64,000 nucleotides of DNA from Williamsia sp. 1138. GTDB taxonomy: Bacteria; Actinomycetota; Actinomycetes; Mycobacteriales; Mycobacteriaceae. Of this stretch, positions 15,996 to 19,722 are shown one piece after another. The notes below the pieces were generated by a model. It did no database searches and was not told the DNA's origin. It was given only the letters and a program-made list of their open reading frames with translations. How positions within the stretch are numbered: the first letter of the stretch is position 1; every line of letters starts with the position of its first letter. A program made the translations under genes and the position numbers. The stretch lies in NCBI RefSeq assembly GCF_002095435.2, contig NZ_MJEJ02000048.1, forward strand, positions 186,001-250,000. Reading direction: 5' to 3'.

Positions 15996-16535
15996 ATGGA
16001 GGTCGTGACCACAGCATTGAAAACCGCAACCGCGATCCTGCACACCAACAACGGTGACATCAGGATCGCCCTGTTCGGAAACCACGCACCCAAGACGGTT
16101 GCCAACTTCACCGGCCTGGCCGATGGCAGCAAGGACTACTCCAAGCCGAACGCCTCCGGCGGCGACGCGGGGCCCTTCTACGATGGCGCGATCTTCCACC
16201 GCATCATCTCGGGCTTCATGCTCCAGGGCGGCGACCCCACCGGCACCGGCATGGGCGGCCCGGGATACGAGTTCGAGGACGAGTTCCACCCCGAGCTGAC
16301 CTTCAGTCAGCCCTATCTGCTGGCCATGGCGAACGCCGGCCCCGGGACCAACGGCTCGCAGTTCTTCATCACCGTCGGCCCGACCCCCCACCTCAACCGC
16401 AAGCACACCATCTTCGGTGTGGTCGAGGACGAGGAGTCCAAGAAGGTCGTCGACAAGATCGAGGCGGTCTCGACCGACCGTCGTGACCGTCCGCTCGAAG
16501 ACGTGATCATCCAGAAGATCACCATCGAGTCCTGA
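15996..16535 (+). CDS. ppiA: Peptidyl-prolyl cis-trans isomerase, cyclophilin type
   Basis: Cyclophilins catalyse proline isomerisation during protein folding. The 179-residue protein has the full cyclophilin core: TVANFTGLADG, FYDGAIFHRIISGFMLQGGD with the catalytic Arg, MANAGPGTNGSQFFITVGPT, and LNRKHTIFGVV. There is no signal peptide, so it is cytoplasmic. ATG 15996 is used; GTG 16005 is possible. The frame stays open far upstream, but that part runs antisense to the GAF gene. The location matches ppiA (Rv0009) in mycobacterial origin regions. Confidence 0.95.
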   Translation: MEVVTTALKTATAILHTNNGDIRIALFGNHAPKTVANFTGLADGSKDYSKPNASGGDAGPFYDGAIFHRIISGFMLQGGDPTGTGMGGPGYEFEDEFHPELTFSQPYLLAMANAGPGTNGSQFFITVGPTPHLNRKHTIFGVVEDEESKKVVDKIEAVSTDRRDRPLEDVIIQKITIES

Positions 16536-16545
16536 TCGGTTCTAT

Positions 16546-17424
16546 GTGACATTCCAGCCCCCGGCGCCCGGGCGTCCATCGCCTCCGGCCCAGGTGTGCG
16601 TCCGGCACCCCGATCGCCCGACTGGACTGTCGTGCAGTCGGTGCGGCCGTCCGGCCTGCCCCGAATGTCTGCACCCGGCCGCAGTCGGCCAGCATTGCGT
16701 CGACTGCGTCCGGGCAGCGGGCAACCGGGTCCCGCGCGCCAGGACGATCGGCGCGAGCAGGCCGTACGCCACCTACACCCTGCTCGCGGTGAATCTCGTC
16801 ATCTTCGCGATCACCGCCCTGCAGGCCGGCAGCGTCACGGAACTGCGTTCCTCGGAGGTGTTCACCGAAGGCGCCCTCTGGGGACCGTTCATGGCCTCGG
16901 GCGAGTACTGGCGGGTGCTCACCGCCGGTTTCCTGCACTTCTCGTTGATCCATGTCGCGGTCAACATGTTCTCCCTCTACATTCTCGGCCGTGATGTCGA
17001 GATCACGCTCGGCACAGCACGATTCGTCGGGATCTACCTCACCTCGCTGCTCGGTGGCAGCGCGCTGGTGATGCTCTTCGAGAACCCGCTGGCGATCAAC
17101 GCCGGAGCCTCGGGTGCGATTTTCGGTCTGATGGGTGCGACCCTCGTGGTGGTCCTCAAGGCCAAGATCCCGGCCGGCATGGTCCTCGGAGTCATCGGCA
17201 TCAACGTGGTGCTGTCGCTGACCATCCCGAACATCTCTTTGTGGGCCCACATGGGCGGCCTGTTTTTCGGGGCCGCGGCCGCCGCGGGGATCCTCTACGG
17301 CCCCGAACTGCTGCCCGCCGGCAAGAAGACCTCCCGCAACGCCGCAGCGATCGGGTGGATCGTGATGGGTGGCCTCATCGTGCTCGCGCTCGTGCTCAGT
17401 GCCGCCCGCGCCCAGACCCTGTGA
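16546..17424 (+). CDS. Rhomboid family intramembrane serine protease with N-terminal zinc-finger-like motif
   Basis: The 292-residue protein has an N-terminal Cys/His cluster (CVRHPDRPTGLSCSRCGRPA, then CPECLHPAAVGQHCVDC) resembling a B-box type zinc finger. Six or seven hydrophobic helices follow. The rhomboid active site is complete: INAGASGAIFG with nucleophile Ser189 and WAHMGG with His235. HFSLIHVAVNMFSLYILGRD is the conserved loop and helix. GTG 16546 lies 10 bases after the ppiA stop, so it is probably cotranscribed with ppiA. The substrate is unknown. Confidence 0.93.
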   Translation: MTFQPPAPGRPSPPAQVCVRHPDRPTGLSCSRCGRPACPECLHPAAVGQHCVDCVRAAGNRVPRARTIGASRPYATYTLLAVNLVIFAITALQAGSVTELRSSEVFTEGALWGPFMASGEYWRVLTAGFLHFSLIHVAVNMFSLYILGRDVEITLGTARFVGIYLTSLLGGSALVMLFENPLAINAGASGAIFGLMGATLVVVLKAKIPAGMVLGVIGINVVLSLTIPNISLWAHMGGLFFGAAAAAGILYGPELLPAGKKTSRNAAAIGWIVMGGLIVLALVLSAARAQTL

Positions 17425-17425
17425 G

Positions 17426-17890
17426 CTACTTGCGTTCTTGAATCGCCAGTCCGGCCTCGCGGAGTGCATCGGCGACGTCGAGTGGGTTCGCGCCCAGGTC
17501 CCAGCGACCGAAGATCACCAAACGTTCGCCGTCATGGGCGGTCGCGTCGTCGATGTCGAACTCCAGATGCGGCACCCGCCTTCCCAGTCGCGGGTAGCTG
17601 ATCACCTGGGCCCGGCGGACCTCGTCGAACGCATAGCGCCGGACGCCACCGGTGAGCGTCCTGATCGCGAGCGTGTGGGTGTCGACCACCGCCAGTCGCG
17701 GGCGGACGCGTAATCCGATCGCCCCGAGTACGAGCAGCAGCACCGCAGCGATGACCATCAACAGGACACCCGCGGGATCGGGACCTGCGACCAGCGCGGC
17801 GACACCCAGCAGGACTCCGCCGGCCACCATGACGCCCGCCATCGCGGGAGGTGTCGACCACGACAGGGTCGACGAAGCAGAGTTATCCAC
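17426..17890 (-). CDS. PH-like membrane protein (Rv0010c type)
   Basis: Two hydrophobic helices (PAMAGVMVAGGVLLGVAALV and VLLMVIAAVLLLVLGAIGL) are followed by a soluble domain with the bacterial PH-like features RPRLAVVDTHTLAIRTL and RLVIFGRWDLGANPLDVADA. By position next to crgA it corresponds to mycobacterial Rv0010c. The start is uncertain: GTG 17890 gives a normal-length protein, and TTG 17905 is in frame but would place both perfect DnaA boxes inside the gene. Its stop is one base from the rhomboid stop (convergent). The molecular role is unknown. Confidence 0.8.
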   Translation of the reverse strand: MDNSASSTLSWSTPPAMAGVMVAGGVLLGVAALVAGPDPAGVLLMVIAAVLLLVLGAIGLRVRPRLAVVDTHTLAIRTLTGGVRRYAFDEVRRAQVISYPRLGRRVPHLEFDIDDATAHDGERLVIFGRWDLGANPLDVADALREAGLAIQERK

Positions 17891-17960
17891 AGGCCTTATC
17901 CACAATGGGGACTAGTTACACACATGTTGTTCCACAGCTGTGGATGAATTACACACATGT
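17883..17960. promoter_or_regulatory. Cluster of DnaA-box-like sites with palindrome and direct repeats
   Basis: Two perfect TTATCCACA nonamers lie at 17883-17891 and 17896-17904. Two weaker ones follow: TGTTCCACA at 17928-17936 and, on the other strand, TGTGGATGA at 17939-17947. The 12-base palindrome CCACAGCTGTGG is at 17932-17943. It is flanked by a direct repeat TTACACACATGT at 17916-17927 and 17949-17960. The array spans the 5' end of the PH-like gene and the gap behind crgA. DnaA binding is inferred from the consensus match. Confidence 0.65.
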
Positions 17961-17992
17961 AGTTCGGGTGCTCACAGGCATCGACGTCGAGG

Positions 17993-18283
17993 TCAGCGCC
18001 ACTTCATGGTCATCAGCAGTCCGGCCACCATGAAGCCGAAGCCGATGAGAAAGTTCCACGGGCCGAGCTCGTACATCCAGTTCAGGATCTTGCCCTCGGC
18101 GCCGAGTGATTCGGGGGTGGCGACCAGATAGAAGACGATCAGCCACAGCAGGCCGAGCAGCATCAGGCCGAGCATCGTCGAAACGTAGACCGTGCTCGAC
18201 GGTCCGGTTTTCACCTTGACCGGAGTGCGGCTCGCCGGGTTGATCGTGTAATCGGTCTTCTTGCGGACCTTTGACTTGGGCAT
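17993..18283 (-). CDS. crgA: Cell division protein CrgA
   Basis: CrgA is a small septal membrane protein that interacts with FtsZ and other divisome parts in actinobacteria. The 96-residue protein begins [18 protein letters not shown], the usual basic start. It has two transmembrane helices ([20 protein letters not shown] and [19 protein letters not shown]) separated by the conserved [11 protein letters not shown] loop. ATG 18283 is supported by GAGGA 6-7 bases upstream; the open frame extends 11 codons further. It is divergent from trpG. Confidence 0.95.
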
Positions 18284-18382
18284 AGAATTCCTCGGTTCGC
18301 GGGCAAAACGTGTCACTACAACCTAGCTCACCAGGCAATAGAGATGTGAAGCCGCAGCGTCGTCCCAGGTAGCCTGATCGTT

Positions 18383-19063
18383 GTGACCGACCCGATCCAT
18401 ACCGGGCCCCAGCAGGCCCCCGCCCGCATCCTCGTCGTCGACAACTACGACAGCTTCGTCTACAACCTCGTCCAGTACCTCGGACAGCTGGGGGTGCACG
18501 CCGAGGTGTGGCGTAACGACGACGCCAGGCTCGCCGACCCGGCCACCGCGATCGCCGAGTTCGACGGGGTACTGCTCTCGCCGGGACCGGGGACGCCGCA
18601 ACGGGCCGGTGCCACCATGCCCTTGGTCGCAGCGGCCGCCACGAGCGAGACTCCCTTGCTCGGGGTCTGTCTCGGGCATCAGGCAATCGGCGCGGCATTC
18701 GGTGCCACGGTCGACCGCGCCCCGGAGCTGCTGCACGGCAAGACCTCGCTGGTCTCACACGACGACGACGGTGTCTTGGCCGGTCTGCCCAATCCGTTCA
18801 CCGCCACCAGGTATCACTCGCTGACCGTTCTCCCGGAGACGATCCCGACCGAGTTGGTGGTCACCGCGACGACCGGCACCGGCATCGTGATGGCCATGCG
18901 CCACCGCGAATTGCCGATCCACGGCGTCCAGTTCCACCCCGAGAGTGTGCTGACCCAGGGCGGGCACCGGATGCTGGCGAACTGGCTGACGGTGTGCGGG
19001 ATGATCGTTCCCGATGGTCAGGTACGTGTCCTGGAAGAGCAGGTCGCCGCGGCACTCGGCTGA
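18383..19063 (+). CDS. trpG: Class I glutamine amidotransferase, anthranilate/aminodeoxychorismate synthase component II
   Basis: This subunit hydrolyses glutamine and channels ammonia to the chorismate-using partner. The 226-residue protein has the catalytic triad motifs: Cys in LLGVCLGHQAIG and His plus Glu in HGVQFHPESVLTQGG. The N-terminal ILVVDNYDSFVYNLVQYLG is typical of TrpG/PabA. The start is GTG 18383. In mycobacteria the gene at this position is called trpG but may serve both folate and tryptophan synthesis; no partner gene is in the window to decide. Confidence 0.92.
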   Translation: MTDPIHTGPQQAPARILVVDNYDSFVYNLVQYLGQLGVHAEVWRNDDARLADPATAIAEFDGVLLSPGPGTPQRAGATMPLVAAAATSETPLLGVCLGHQAIGAAFGATVDRAPELLHGKTSLVSHDDDGVLAGLPNPFTATRYHSLTVLPETIPTELVVTATTGTGIVMAMRHRELPIHGVQFHPESVLTQGGHRMLANWLTVCGMIVPDGQVRVLEEQVAAALG

Positions 19064-19074
19064 CGGGACACGTG

Positions 19075-19722
19075 ATGGTCTCCGACACCGAGCGATCCAC
19101 CCGATCGGCCGCGACCCGCGACCGGATCCTGGTCGCGGCAGAGCGACTGTTCGCCGAACACGGGCTGTTCGCGGTGTCGAATCGCCAGGTGAGCGAGGCG
19201 GCCGGACAAGGCAACAACGCCGCTGTCGGCTACCACTTCGGGACCAAGACCGACCTGGTGCGGGCGATCGTGACGAAGCACGCGGGACAGATCGAGGAAC
19301 TGCGCGCTGCAGCGCTGCGCGAGATCGAAGGTTCGACCGATGTCCGGGACTGGGTCACCTGCCTGGTACGTCCGTCGACCGAGCATCTCGCCGCGCTGGG
19401 CACTCCATCCTGGTATGCCCGCTTCAACGCTCAGGTGCTCACCGATCCGACCCTGCGCGTCCTCGTCTACACCGAGGCGTCCGGGGCCTCACCGAGTCTG
19501 GCGAGGTTGCTGTCCGGGCTCGGGAGCACCGTCGACGACATACCCGAGGACATCCGCCGCGCCCGGGCCGACATGGGCCGGTCGCTGATGGTCCACATGT
19601 GTGCCGAACGAGAGTTGCGGCTCGCCGGCGAGGGCGGCCCCGAGACCATCGGTTGGCACGACTTCGGCACCGACCTGATCGACGCGATCGTCGGCATCTG
19701 GACCGCGCCCGTGACCCGCTGA
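19075..19722 (+). CDS. TetR family transcriptional regulator
   Basis: The 215-residue protein has an N-terminal TetR helix-turn-helix: TRDRILVAAERLFAEHGLFA, then NRQVSEAAGQGNNAAVGYHFG. The C-terminal ligand domain (about 65-215) is generic. ATG 19075 (or the adjacent in-frame GTG 19072) lies 11 bases after the trpG stop. It is convergent with pknB. The target genes and effector are unknown, and it is an addition to the usual mycobacterial gene order between trpG and pknB. Confidence 0.88.
   Translation: MVSDTERSTRSAATRDRILVAAERLFAEHGLFAVSNRQVSEAAGQGNNAAVGYHFGTKTDLVRAIVTKHAGQIEELRAAALREIEGSTDVRDWVTCLVRPSTEHLAALGTPSWYARFNAQVLTDPTLRVLVYTEASGASPSLARLLSGLGSTVDDIPEDIRRARADMGRSLMVHMCAERELRLAGEGGPETIGWHDFGTDLIDAIVGIWTAPVTR

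What the first reader, a model, noticed from the sequence alone, without database searches (positions are those of the whole stretch)
17883..17960. Compact DnaA-box cluster far from oriC, beside crgA
Two perfect TTATCCACA sites 13 bases apart, two near-matches, a 12-base palindrome and a 12-base direct repeat sit together within 78 bases. The candidate oriC spacer after dnaA contains only imperfect boxes, so this second cluster carries better matches than the origin itself. It lies next to division gene crgA and just downstream of the gyrase block. It could be a DnaA-titration site, a DnaA-controlled promoter or a part of the origin.
Basis: partly seen in the sequence, partly recalled or inferred. 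Interest (0 to 1): 0.72.

Follow-up and report, generated by a model that had tools for sequence, protein, structure and literature searches.

The report
Conserved DnaA-binding site beside crgA
A short non-coding stretch beside the division gene crgA, near the replication origin, carries binding sites for the replication initiator DnaA next to a second, palindromic operator that also recurs at promoters of other genes, several of them division genes; it is kept in many actinobacteria and may tie DNA replication to cell division.

Summary
In detail: two exact DnaA boxes 13 bp apart (17883, 17896), weaker inverted boxes and two copies of a palindrome AATnACA-nnnn-TGTnATT (17914-17931, 17947-17964). 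The composite recurs at the 3' end of crgA: 55 of 60 class genomes with both positions listed, 111 of 115 named loci, four more inverted, and 13 of 16 crgA-bearing matches in other classes, though most genomes outside the class do not match (29 of 198 match). Exact boxes occur in 69 of 87 crgA 3' regions, 0 of 475 control windows. It lies within 60 kb of dnaA in 33 of 36 genomes. Where the PH gene is absent it sits between converging genes, so it is not mainly a promoter.

In mycobacteria the site is a published DnaA target of unknown function (PMC7738170). New here: the wide conservation, and the palindrome as an operator of its own. It follows the boxes in 120 of 120 named loci chosen by boxes alone and recurs at whiB2 promoters (also in this genome), a DUF3145 gene, and sepX- and ripA-like genes. 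In weakly matching lineages it is often lost (7 of 30 keep it). Its binder is unknown; MtrA leads. Best reading: an early-replicated DnaA control site tuned by a division regulator.

The parts
17883..17891 (+). DnaA box 1, exact TTATCCACA
   Evidence: conserved column block in alignment A1
17896..17904 (+). DnaA box 2, exact TTATCCACA, 13 bp after box 1
   Evidence: conserved in A1
17906..17914 (-). weak inverted DnaA box (TAGTCCCCA, 2 mismatches); the TGGGGA block is well conserved in relatives
   Evidence: (T32 G33 G35 G36 A37 at 90% or more)
17914..17931 (.). palindromic operator, copy 1 (AATnACAnnnnTGTnATT type; here the right half ends in GTT)
   Evidence: A44 A46 T51 G52 T53 invariant, C45 at 90% or more, in 30 loci; ACA-N4-TGT after the boxes in 58 of 59 loci and 120 of 120 named loci picked by boxes alone
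17932..17943 (.). 12-bp palindrome CCACAGCTGTGG, overlapping box 3; seen in part of the relatives only
17939..17947 (-). DnaA box 3, inverted, TCATCCACA (1 mismatch)
17947..17964 (.). palindromic operator, copy 2
   Evidence: (partial model match, E 3.4e-4)
17993..18316 (-). crgA (ORF bounds; Pfam match 17996-18283); the element lies at its 3' end
   Evidence: PF06781, E 3.4e-32
17426..17905 (-). PH-domain protein gene (bPH_6); the ORF's first codons overlap boxes 1 and 2; absent from some lineages that keep the element
   Evidence: PF10756, E 4e-6
16546..17424 (+). rhomboid protease gene, left neighbour of the element where the PH gene is absent
   Evidence: PF01694, E 3.4e-29

Best explanation
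A conserved non-coding DnaA-binding control site. Two or three closely spaced DnaA boxes load a small DnaA complex soon after the fork passes (the site is 9-60 kb from dnaA in most genomes measured), so the free or active DnaA pool changes just after initiation, as at datA or the box clusters of other bacteria. A dimeric regulator bound to the abutting palindrome, the same operator that lies upstream of whiB2 and other genes, helps or blocks DnaA loading, so DnaA availability follows the state of division. MtrA is the leading candidate for that regulator. Shown here: sequence, position, conservation, recurrence of the operator. Shown by others in mycobacteria: DnaA binding, and a cell-length phenotype when sequences at the site are altered. 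Inferred: titration/control as the function, the gating, the identity of the binder, and the sign of the effect.
For: Own genome: one full-length model match (E 1.2e-16) plus the adjacent second palindrome; other matches have E > 0.4 (150 of 559 first-look candidates scored). Class: 212 of 296 genomes match at E<=0.01, partial matches included; of 104 best places 60 had a listed crgA position and 55 lie within 400 bp of its 3' end. Of 30 regions from genomes with weak or no match near crgA, 24 still have two or more boxes. Named genomes: pattern of boxes only, 120 loci; crgA seen in 115, element within 400 bp of its 3' end in standard orientation in 111, four more inverted with gaps of 73-574 bp; ACA-N4-TGT follows in 120 of 120. 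Other classes: 13 of 16. Of five genomes of family f40 that keep the element 9-23 kb from crgA, the two I read have no box at crgA itself, so it is an independent unit. DnaA binding at the orthologous locus by IDAP-seq and EMSA (M. tuberculosis) and ChIP-seq (M. smegmatis) (PMC7738170). Operator: 26 of 37 exact palindromes in 14 genomes lie at this element (10), whiB2 (8), sepX-like (2), ripA-like (3) or DUF3145 (3) genes. MtrA binds oriC and dnaA in two genera and is reported to touch DnaA (PMC5487470); ripA is a proven MtrA target (PMC6265350); the S. coelicolor MtrA site has a TNAC-N6-GTNA core (PMC5650626).
Against: No binding, replication or division experiment was run here. The published phenotype is increased cell length with unchanged initiation rate, likened to reduced DnaA activity, which a pure titration site would not predict. 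The palindrome is not universal: only 7 of the 30 weak-match regions hold ACA-N4-TGT, and 6 of 30 have no boxes at all. Outside the class only 20 genomes matched among the 198 searched at phylum level (29 matches in all). Against MtrA: its published site is a direct repeat while this one is symmetric; a 2026 S. venezuelae study fixes only two bases of a 7-bp motif and lists whiB as an indirect target (PMC13189361); whiB transcription is unchanged in the S. coelicolor mtrA mutant; MtrA passes the NCBIfam cut-off in 14 of 16 genomes, not in G386 and G474, which carry the palindrome. A fixed place beside crgA is not required by titration.
Confidence: 0.47

Rival explanations
1. A DARS-like site: the box cluster, with the palindrome-bound factor, speeds ADP release from DnaA and so raises ATP-DnaA.
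For: A short cluster of boxes with an accessory-factor site recalls DARS1/2 with IHF/Fis (passages of review PMC5742627); variants at the published site phenocopy dnaA variants that the authors liken to reduced activity (PMC7738170).
Against: The position near oriC is like datA, which the review places near oriC. I found no report of nucleotide exchange at such a site in Actinomycetota in the passages I read; I made no search for it beyond.
Confidence: 0.2
2. An operator/promoter region for the PH-domain gene or crgA, with DnaA as transcription factor.
For: In this family the boxes overlap the PH ORF start and the palindrome lies upstream of it. HigA2, a regulator, binds there in vitro and Rv0010c is up-regulated in its mutant (PMC11205783).
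Against: In nine of 29 loci no PH gene was found, the gap from rhomboid to the element is 16-283 bp, and the element lies between the converging 3' ends of rhomboid and crgA; Rv0010c and Rv0011c expression is unchanged in dnaA mutants (PMC7738170). The promoter scan found none, but 0.2 were expected, so it says little.
Confidence: 0.13
3. The palindrome is a WhiA (or WhiA/WhiB) site, so the element is a DnaA-WhiA meeting point.
For: Half-sites sometimes read GACAC and often nACAC; WhiA's motif is GACAC and it governs division genes (PMC3781837); WhiA HTH is present in 15 of 16 genomes checked, including G386, which has no MtrA over the cut-off.
Against: WhiA binds as a monomer to an asymmetric motif, and the G of GACAC is not conserved here. 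G474 has the palindrome without a WhiA match, in a draft genome.
Confidence: 0.1
4. A chromosome-organising or transcription road-block mark at the crgA 3' end that uses DnaA as a structural protein.
For: The position at the crgA 3' end is more constant than titration needs.
Against: Five f40 genomes keep the element 9-23 kb from crgA.
Confidence: 0.07
5. A part of the replication origin.
For: DnaA boxes, origin-proximal.
Against: Median 21.5 kb from dnaA, up to 178 kb; a separate box-bearing dnaA-dnaN spacer exists.
Confidence: 0.02

Closest known systems
M. tuberculosis Rv0010c-Rv0011c (crgA) DnaA interaction site (PMC7738170)
   Same: Same place and gene neighbours; DnaA binds it in vitro, and its M. 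smegmatis homologue in vivo; a palindrome lies beside the boxes.
   Different: [quoted passage not shown] here the palindrome is a separate, recurring operator and the site recurs across the class and in some genomes of other classes.
E. coli datA
   Same: Non-coding DnaA-box cluster near oriC with a site for an accessory protein (review passages).
   Different: An IHF site was not looked for; the element is far shorter; ATP hydrolysis untested.
E. coli DARS1/DARS2
   Same: Short core of about three boxes, with accessory factors at DARS2.
   Different: Origin-proximal position; nucleotide exchange untested.
S. coelicolor DnaA-box clusters (Smulczyk-Krawczyszyn 2006; paper not held; not seen)
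   Same: Non-oriC box clusters that repress untimely initiation (as the review says). From recall, clusters H69, H24 and D78 lie near oriC, and H69 may be this site.
   Different: Identity of H69 with the crgA site was not tested; the large-genome family f33 has a mirrored, looser arrangement.
MtrA binding sites
   Same: TNAC-N6-GTNA core; shared target ripA (PMC6265350) and, in S. venezuelae ChIP, whiB (as cited in PMC5650626).
   Different: Inverted symmetry rather than direct repeat; no MtrA above cut-off in two genomes that keep the palindrome.

Membership tests
Mycobacterial Rv0010c-Rv0011c DnaA site | Lies between a PH-domain gene and crgA and holds a DnaA-box cluster | tested here: met
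Mycobacterial Rv0010c-Rv0011c DnaA site | Bound by DnaA | not testable with these tools
   published for two mycobacteria only
datA-type DnaA control locus | Origin-proximal non-coding cluster of DnaA boxes | tested here: met
datA-type DnaA control locus | Stimulates DnaA-ATP hydrolysis with IHF | not testable with these tools
   no such assay; no IHF consensus was searched
DARS | Promotes ADP release from DnaA | not testable with these tools
   none
MtrA box | TNAC-N6-GTNA core with 11-bp period | tested here: inconclusive
   core in 49 of 87 crgA 3' regions against 6 of 475 controls and in 93 of 120 named loci; in this window the second half reads GTTG/GTAG, so the core is imperfect
MtrA box | Direct, not inverted, repeat | tested here: not met
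   the columns outside ACA/TGT are two-fold symmetric (AAT...ATT); family f33 alone shows a direct-repeat form
MtrA box | MtrA present wherever the site is | tested here: not met
   14 of 16 genomes over cut-off; weaker matches to the same model are present in all 16
WhiA site | GACAC with conserved G | tested here: not met
   first base of the half-site varies
FtsR site | 25-bp AACCCTAAAGTAAAGGTTGAGGGTA-type inverted repeat | tested here: not met
   motif from passages of PMC6683498 compared by eye
Promoter | A gene start facing away from the element in all lineages | tested here: not met
   convergent neighbours in nine of 29 loci

The most novel reading that the evidence does not exclude
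The element is an ancient junction where the replication initiator DnaA and a dimeric division-gene regulator (the one that reads whiB2, and probably sepX and ripA, promoters) bind side by side. The operator there has no gene to regulate; its job is to gate DnaA storage or activity, which couples initiation to division in Actinomycetota, a phylum for which no equivalent of RIDA, datA or DARS is known to me (recall).
Probability: 0.4. Interest if true: 0.86.

Novelty: new variant of a known kind. Interest (0 to 1): 0.68.

Why it matters
How Actinomycetota limit DnaA and tie initiation to division is, to my knowledge, largely open. A ~50-bp non-coding site kept beside the same gene across a class, and in some genomes of other classes, must matter, and its two halves make the question testable: which protein binds the palindrome, and does it change DnaA loading? 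It also offers a new reading of a mycobacterial site that is mutated repeatedly in clinical isolates: the reported hot spot is a palindrome that I read as a separate operator rather than DnaA boxes.

Tried and rejected
Promoter of the PH gene: rejected as the main role (PMC7738170); the promoter scan was uninformative. RNA element: no Rfam match at E<=1 in 16500-19200. Origin part: rejected on distance. FtsR as binder: motif differs. HigA2 as the conserved binder: its published motif has the form of the palindromes seen in g29 genomes, but I searched no genome for HigA2, so this is only judged unlikely. BldD: considered from a recalled consensus, not tested. Palindrome as a pair of DnaA boxes: disfavoured, because it recurs at whiB2 promoters and the published DnaA map names five highly enriched regions, whiB2 and ripA not among them. 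Fetching the S. coelicolor cluster paper failed, so H69 = this site stays untested. 11 of the 37 exact palindromes lie at none of the named gene types (for example beside an acyl-CoA dehydrogenase, a HAD hydrolase and a desaturase gene); one of these 11 (G318:C8) was not read.

Corrections made on re-check. The 38-of-38 invariance of ACA and TGT is by construction, since extracted only sites with ACA-N4-TGT; I now use, the 58 of 59 (L028 lacks it). I had read 80 of the 120 loci (75 of 76 with crgA); all 120 are now counted. The distance count held G050, which has no boxes at crgA; it is dropped and G135 and G282 are added. I had looked at the wrong stretch of L035 and L036: both do hold a box pair. 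The low palindrome count in the weak set is now told. For these I lowered the main confidence from 0.50 to 0.47, the novel case from 0.42 to 0.40, MtrA from 0.35 to 0.30, and raised the promoter and road-block rivals by 0.01 each.

Limits: samples overlap. Of the 87 regions, 30 came from DNA similarity, 27 from the model and 30 from genomes with weak or no model match (one, G062, matches at 2.4e-6 but about 1.8 kb from crgA); G036 is counted twice; L059 was dropped, no crgA found. Boxes there allow one mismatch to TTRTCCACA. The reversed-pattern control (1 site) differs in end dinucleotides, so it is loose. In one search I chose the 16 places partly because the same sequence recurred. sepX-like and ripA-like labels rest on recalled resemblance: no Pfam match for L097, L128, L129, a sub-threshold one for L131. 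For distances crgA with boxes stood in for the element in seven genomes, and 4 of the 40 genomes are left out (three with unknown contig length, and G050).

Full report
OBSERVATION. The cluster is real and as described: two exact TTATCCACA boxes with starts 13 bp apart (17883, 17896), an inverted one-mismatch box (17939), a weak inverted box (17906), CCACAGCTGTGG (17932) and TTACACACATGT twice (17916, 17949). In 100 Markov copies of the window the mean number of exact boxes was 0.07 and no two fell within 78 bp. The dnaA-dnaN spacer has only one-mismatch boxes; the region upstream of dnaA, outside the window, has two exact ones (TTATCCACA, TTGTCCACA) 12 bp apart. Neighbours: crgA (PF06781), a PH-domain gene (PF10756), a rhomboid gene and a cyclophilin gene.

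WHOSE GENOME. The window lies in an unnamed 6.08-Mb genome. Its congeners G001 and G006 have contigs of 86,142 and 1,148,744 bases, the lengths of the Williamsia sp. 1135 and Williamsia muralis records that hold the same pattern, so the genus is probably Williamsia (inference from contig lengths).

CONSERVATION IN RELATIVES. A 301-base query matched 38 of 61 genomes, own included, but crgA itself carries many of those matches. Reading 30 loci showed a separate conserved block: gagTTATCCACAgg-nn-TTATCCACA-n-TGGGGATGAAT-nACA-nnnn-TGT-nATT. A sequence-only model (R1) finds one full-length place in the own genome; apart from the adjacent second palindrome copy (E 3.4e-4), other matches have E > 0.4. 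Two of these weak ones hold a DnaA-box pair of their own (L035, L036).

CLASS. R1 matches 212 of 296 genomes at E<=0.01, 89 of 115 genera; this counts partial, box-only matches. CrgA is present in 289 of 296. Joining the two lists, 60 of 104 best places had a crgA position listed; 55 of 60 lie within 400 bp of its 3' end, 53 of them in one orientation; the five exceptions are all in family f40 and lie 9-23 kb away, inverted. In the two of these five whose crgA region I read (L163, L164) there is no box at crgA and the element is kept at the distant place. I then read 30 crgA 3' regions from genomes with weak or no match there: 24 of 30 have two or more boxes and 14 of 30 an exact one; six have none; but only 7 of 30 hold ACA-N4-TGT and 11 of 30 TNAC-N6-GTNA. 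In family f33, whose genome sizes suggest Streptomyces relatives (not verified), the order is mirrored, with GTCAC-N6-GTCAA on the other side of the boxes in several genomes. Over all 87 regions, 68 have two or more boxes and 69 an exact one, against 12 and 0 of 475 control windows of the same loci.

NAMED GENOMES. crgA is in view in 115; in 111 the element lies within 400 bp of its 3' end in the window's orientation, and in the other four (L260, L283, L294, L298) crgA is on the other side, inverted, with gaps of 73, 235, 574 and 111 bp. ACA-N4-TGT follows within 38 bases in 120 of 120, although the pattern did not ask for it. Genera include Amycolatopsis, Rhodococcus, Saccharopolyspora, Mycobacterium, Mycobacteroides, Williamsia, Gordonia, Jiangella, Pseudonocardia and a record titled Bifidobacterium breve.

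OTHER CLASSES. Of 198 genomes drawn at phylum level (some of them of the class) 29 match at E<=0.001; 20 of the 29 are outside the class. Sixteen of the 20 have crgA, and in 13 of 16 the match lies 6-361 bp from its 3' end, two of them inverted. The 13 stretches read there show boxes followed by AATnACA-nnnn-TGTnATT or a degenerate form. So the site is old, but outside the class most genomes do not match this model; whether they lack crgA was not tested.

PLACE IN THE CHROMOSOME. In 36 genomes the element (in seven, crgA with boxes) lies a median of 21.5 kb from dnaA; 33 of 36 are within 60 kb; the others are at 84, 168 and 178 kb. In nine of 29 loci no PH gene was found and the element lies between the converging 3' ends of rhomboid and crgA, so it cannot be a promoter of either there.

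THE PALINDROME. Its ACA and TGT columns are invariant or at least 90% in the 30-locus alignment; 58 of 59 loci have ACA-N4-TGT just after the boxes. In crgA 3' regions T.ACA....TGT.A occurs in 40 of 87 and 0 of 475 control windows, ACA....TGT in 63 and 16; nearly all come from the 57 matching regions (56 of 57 against 7 of 30). Searching 14 genomes for exact ATnACAnnnnTGTnAT gave 37 sites, 1 for the reversed pattern. By my reading, 10 are this element, 8 lie upstream of whiB2 (including this genome, contig C47), 2 upstream of a sepX-like gene, 3 upstream of ripA-like genes, 3 upstream of a DUF3145 gene, and 11 elsewhere. Over all 36 such loci fetched, 14 have whiB2 and 5 the sepX-like gene. 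WhiB and DUF3145 are confirmed by Pfam; sepX and ripA labels are by recalled resemblance. So the palindrome is an operator in its own right.

WHAT IS PUBLISHED. PMC7738170 (abstract, section 9 and found passages read): in M. tuberculosis five regions are highly enriched by DnaA in vitro, one being Rv0010c-Rv0011c; homologues of the same five are found by ChIP-seq in M. smegmatis; all but one of the convergent clinical mutation sites fall in a small palindrome upstream of Rv0010c; reconstructed variants lengthen cells and shift isoniazid tolerance; expression of Rv0010c and Rv0011c is unchanged in dnaA mutants; the mechanism was left open. That their palindrome is the operator described here rests on position and on the insertion-site letters they quote, not on an alignment with their sequence. 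PMC11205783 (found passages) reports HigA2 binding at the same place. PMC8613195 and PMC12584712 (passages) list Rv0010c among isoniazid candidates. A search for DnaA box + Mycobacterium + crgA + Rv0010c gave two papers, and one for Rv0010c/Rv0011c/intergenic gave twelve; from these listings and the passages I opened, none reports conservation of the site outside mycobacteria.

WHO BINDS THE PALINDROME. MtrA: for, a shared TNAC-N6-GTNA core (PMC5650626, passages), ripA as proven target (PMC6265350, passages), whiB as S. venezuelae ChIP target (cited in PMC5650626), binding at oriC and dnaA in two genera and a reported contact with DnaA (PMC5487470, passages, citing Purushotham 2015). Against, the symmetric rather than direct repeat; a looser MtrA motif and whiB as indirect target in PMC13189361 (passages); unchanged whiB in the S. 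coelicolor mutant; no MtrA above cut-off in G386 and G474. WhiA: present in 15 of 16, but a monomer with an asymmetric motif (PMC3781837, passages). I put MtrA at about 0.30, WhiA at 0.15, and another protein at 0.55.

HOW IT PROBABLY WORKS. DnaA loads on the boxes soon after the fork doubles the site, lowering or reprocessing free DnaA; the palindrome-bound regulator, abutting the boxes, tunes this. The sign is open: origin proximity favours a negative (titration/datA) role, while the published resemblance to dnaA variants of reduced activity favours a positive (DARS) role. Binding and a phenotype are published for mycobacteria; gating and sign are inference.

VERDICT. The site itself is known in mycobacteria; the widely conserved composite and the operator reading are, as far as my searches go, new. 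New variant of a known kind.

Noticed in passing
L035 (G000:C16:9785-9818) and L036 (G000:C48:90331-90364): Two other DnaA-box pairs in the window's own genome (TTATCCACA with a two-mismatch box; TTGTCCACA with a one-mismatch box), found as weak model hits. They could be counterparts of the other published DnaA targets.
   Followed up: partly
L010 (G003), crgA 3' region: The module is present twice, about 100 bp apart, in one congener; the second copy has one exact box.
   Followed up: partly
17947-17964: The palindrome is duplicated in the window's genome and in its closest relatives (L001-L004); congeners L005-L008 have one copy.
   Followed up: partly
17883-17905: A possible GTG start of the PH gene lies inside DnaA box 1, so its true start codon is uncertain.
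   Followed up: no
L152 and L153 (family f15): No DnaA boxes at the crgA 3' end, but GTTAC-N6-GTAAC is there, as if only an operator half had been kept.
   Followed up: no
L132, L133, L134 (family f51): The same palindrome lies upstream of a DUF3145 gene of unknown function in three genomes (Pfam confirmed for L132 only), a candidate division-linked gene.
   Followed up: partly
L123 (G000:C29) and L124 (G016): An identical palindrome ATCACATATATGTGAT in two genera of the family; beside an acyl-CoA dehydrogenase gene in L123. Possibly a different regulator's site.
   Followed up: no
L208, record titled Kitasatospora arboriphila NRRL B-24581: Its contig length (1,421,547) equals that of G008:C2, a congener of the window's genome, so the record title looks wrong.
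   Followed up: partly
L104 and L105 (G344, 5.272 and 5.282 Mb): Two identical palindromes 10 kb apart near the other side of the origin in one g29 genome; one lies upstream of a fatty acid desaturase gene.
   Followed up: no
L162 positions 1618-1638: The region upstream of dnaA has two exact inverted DnaA boxes 12 bp apart, consistent with dnaA autoregulation.
   Followed up: no
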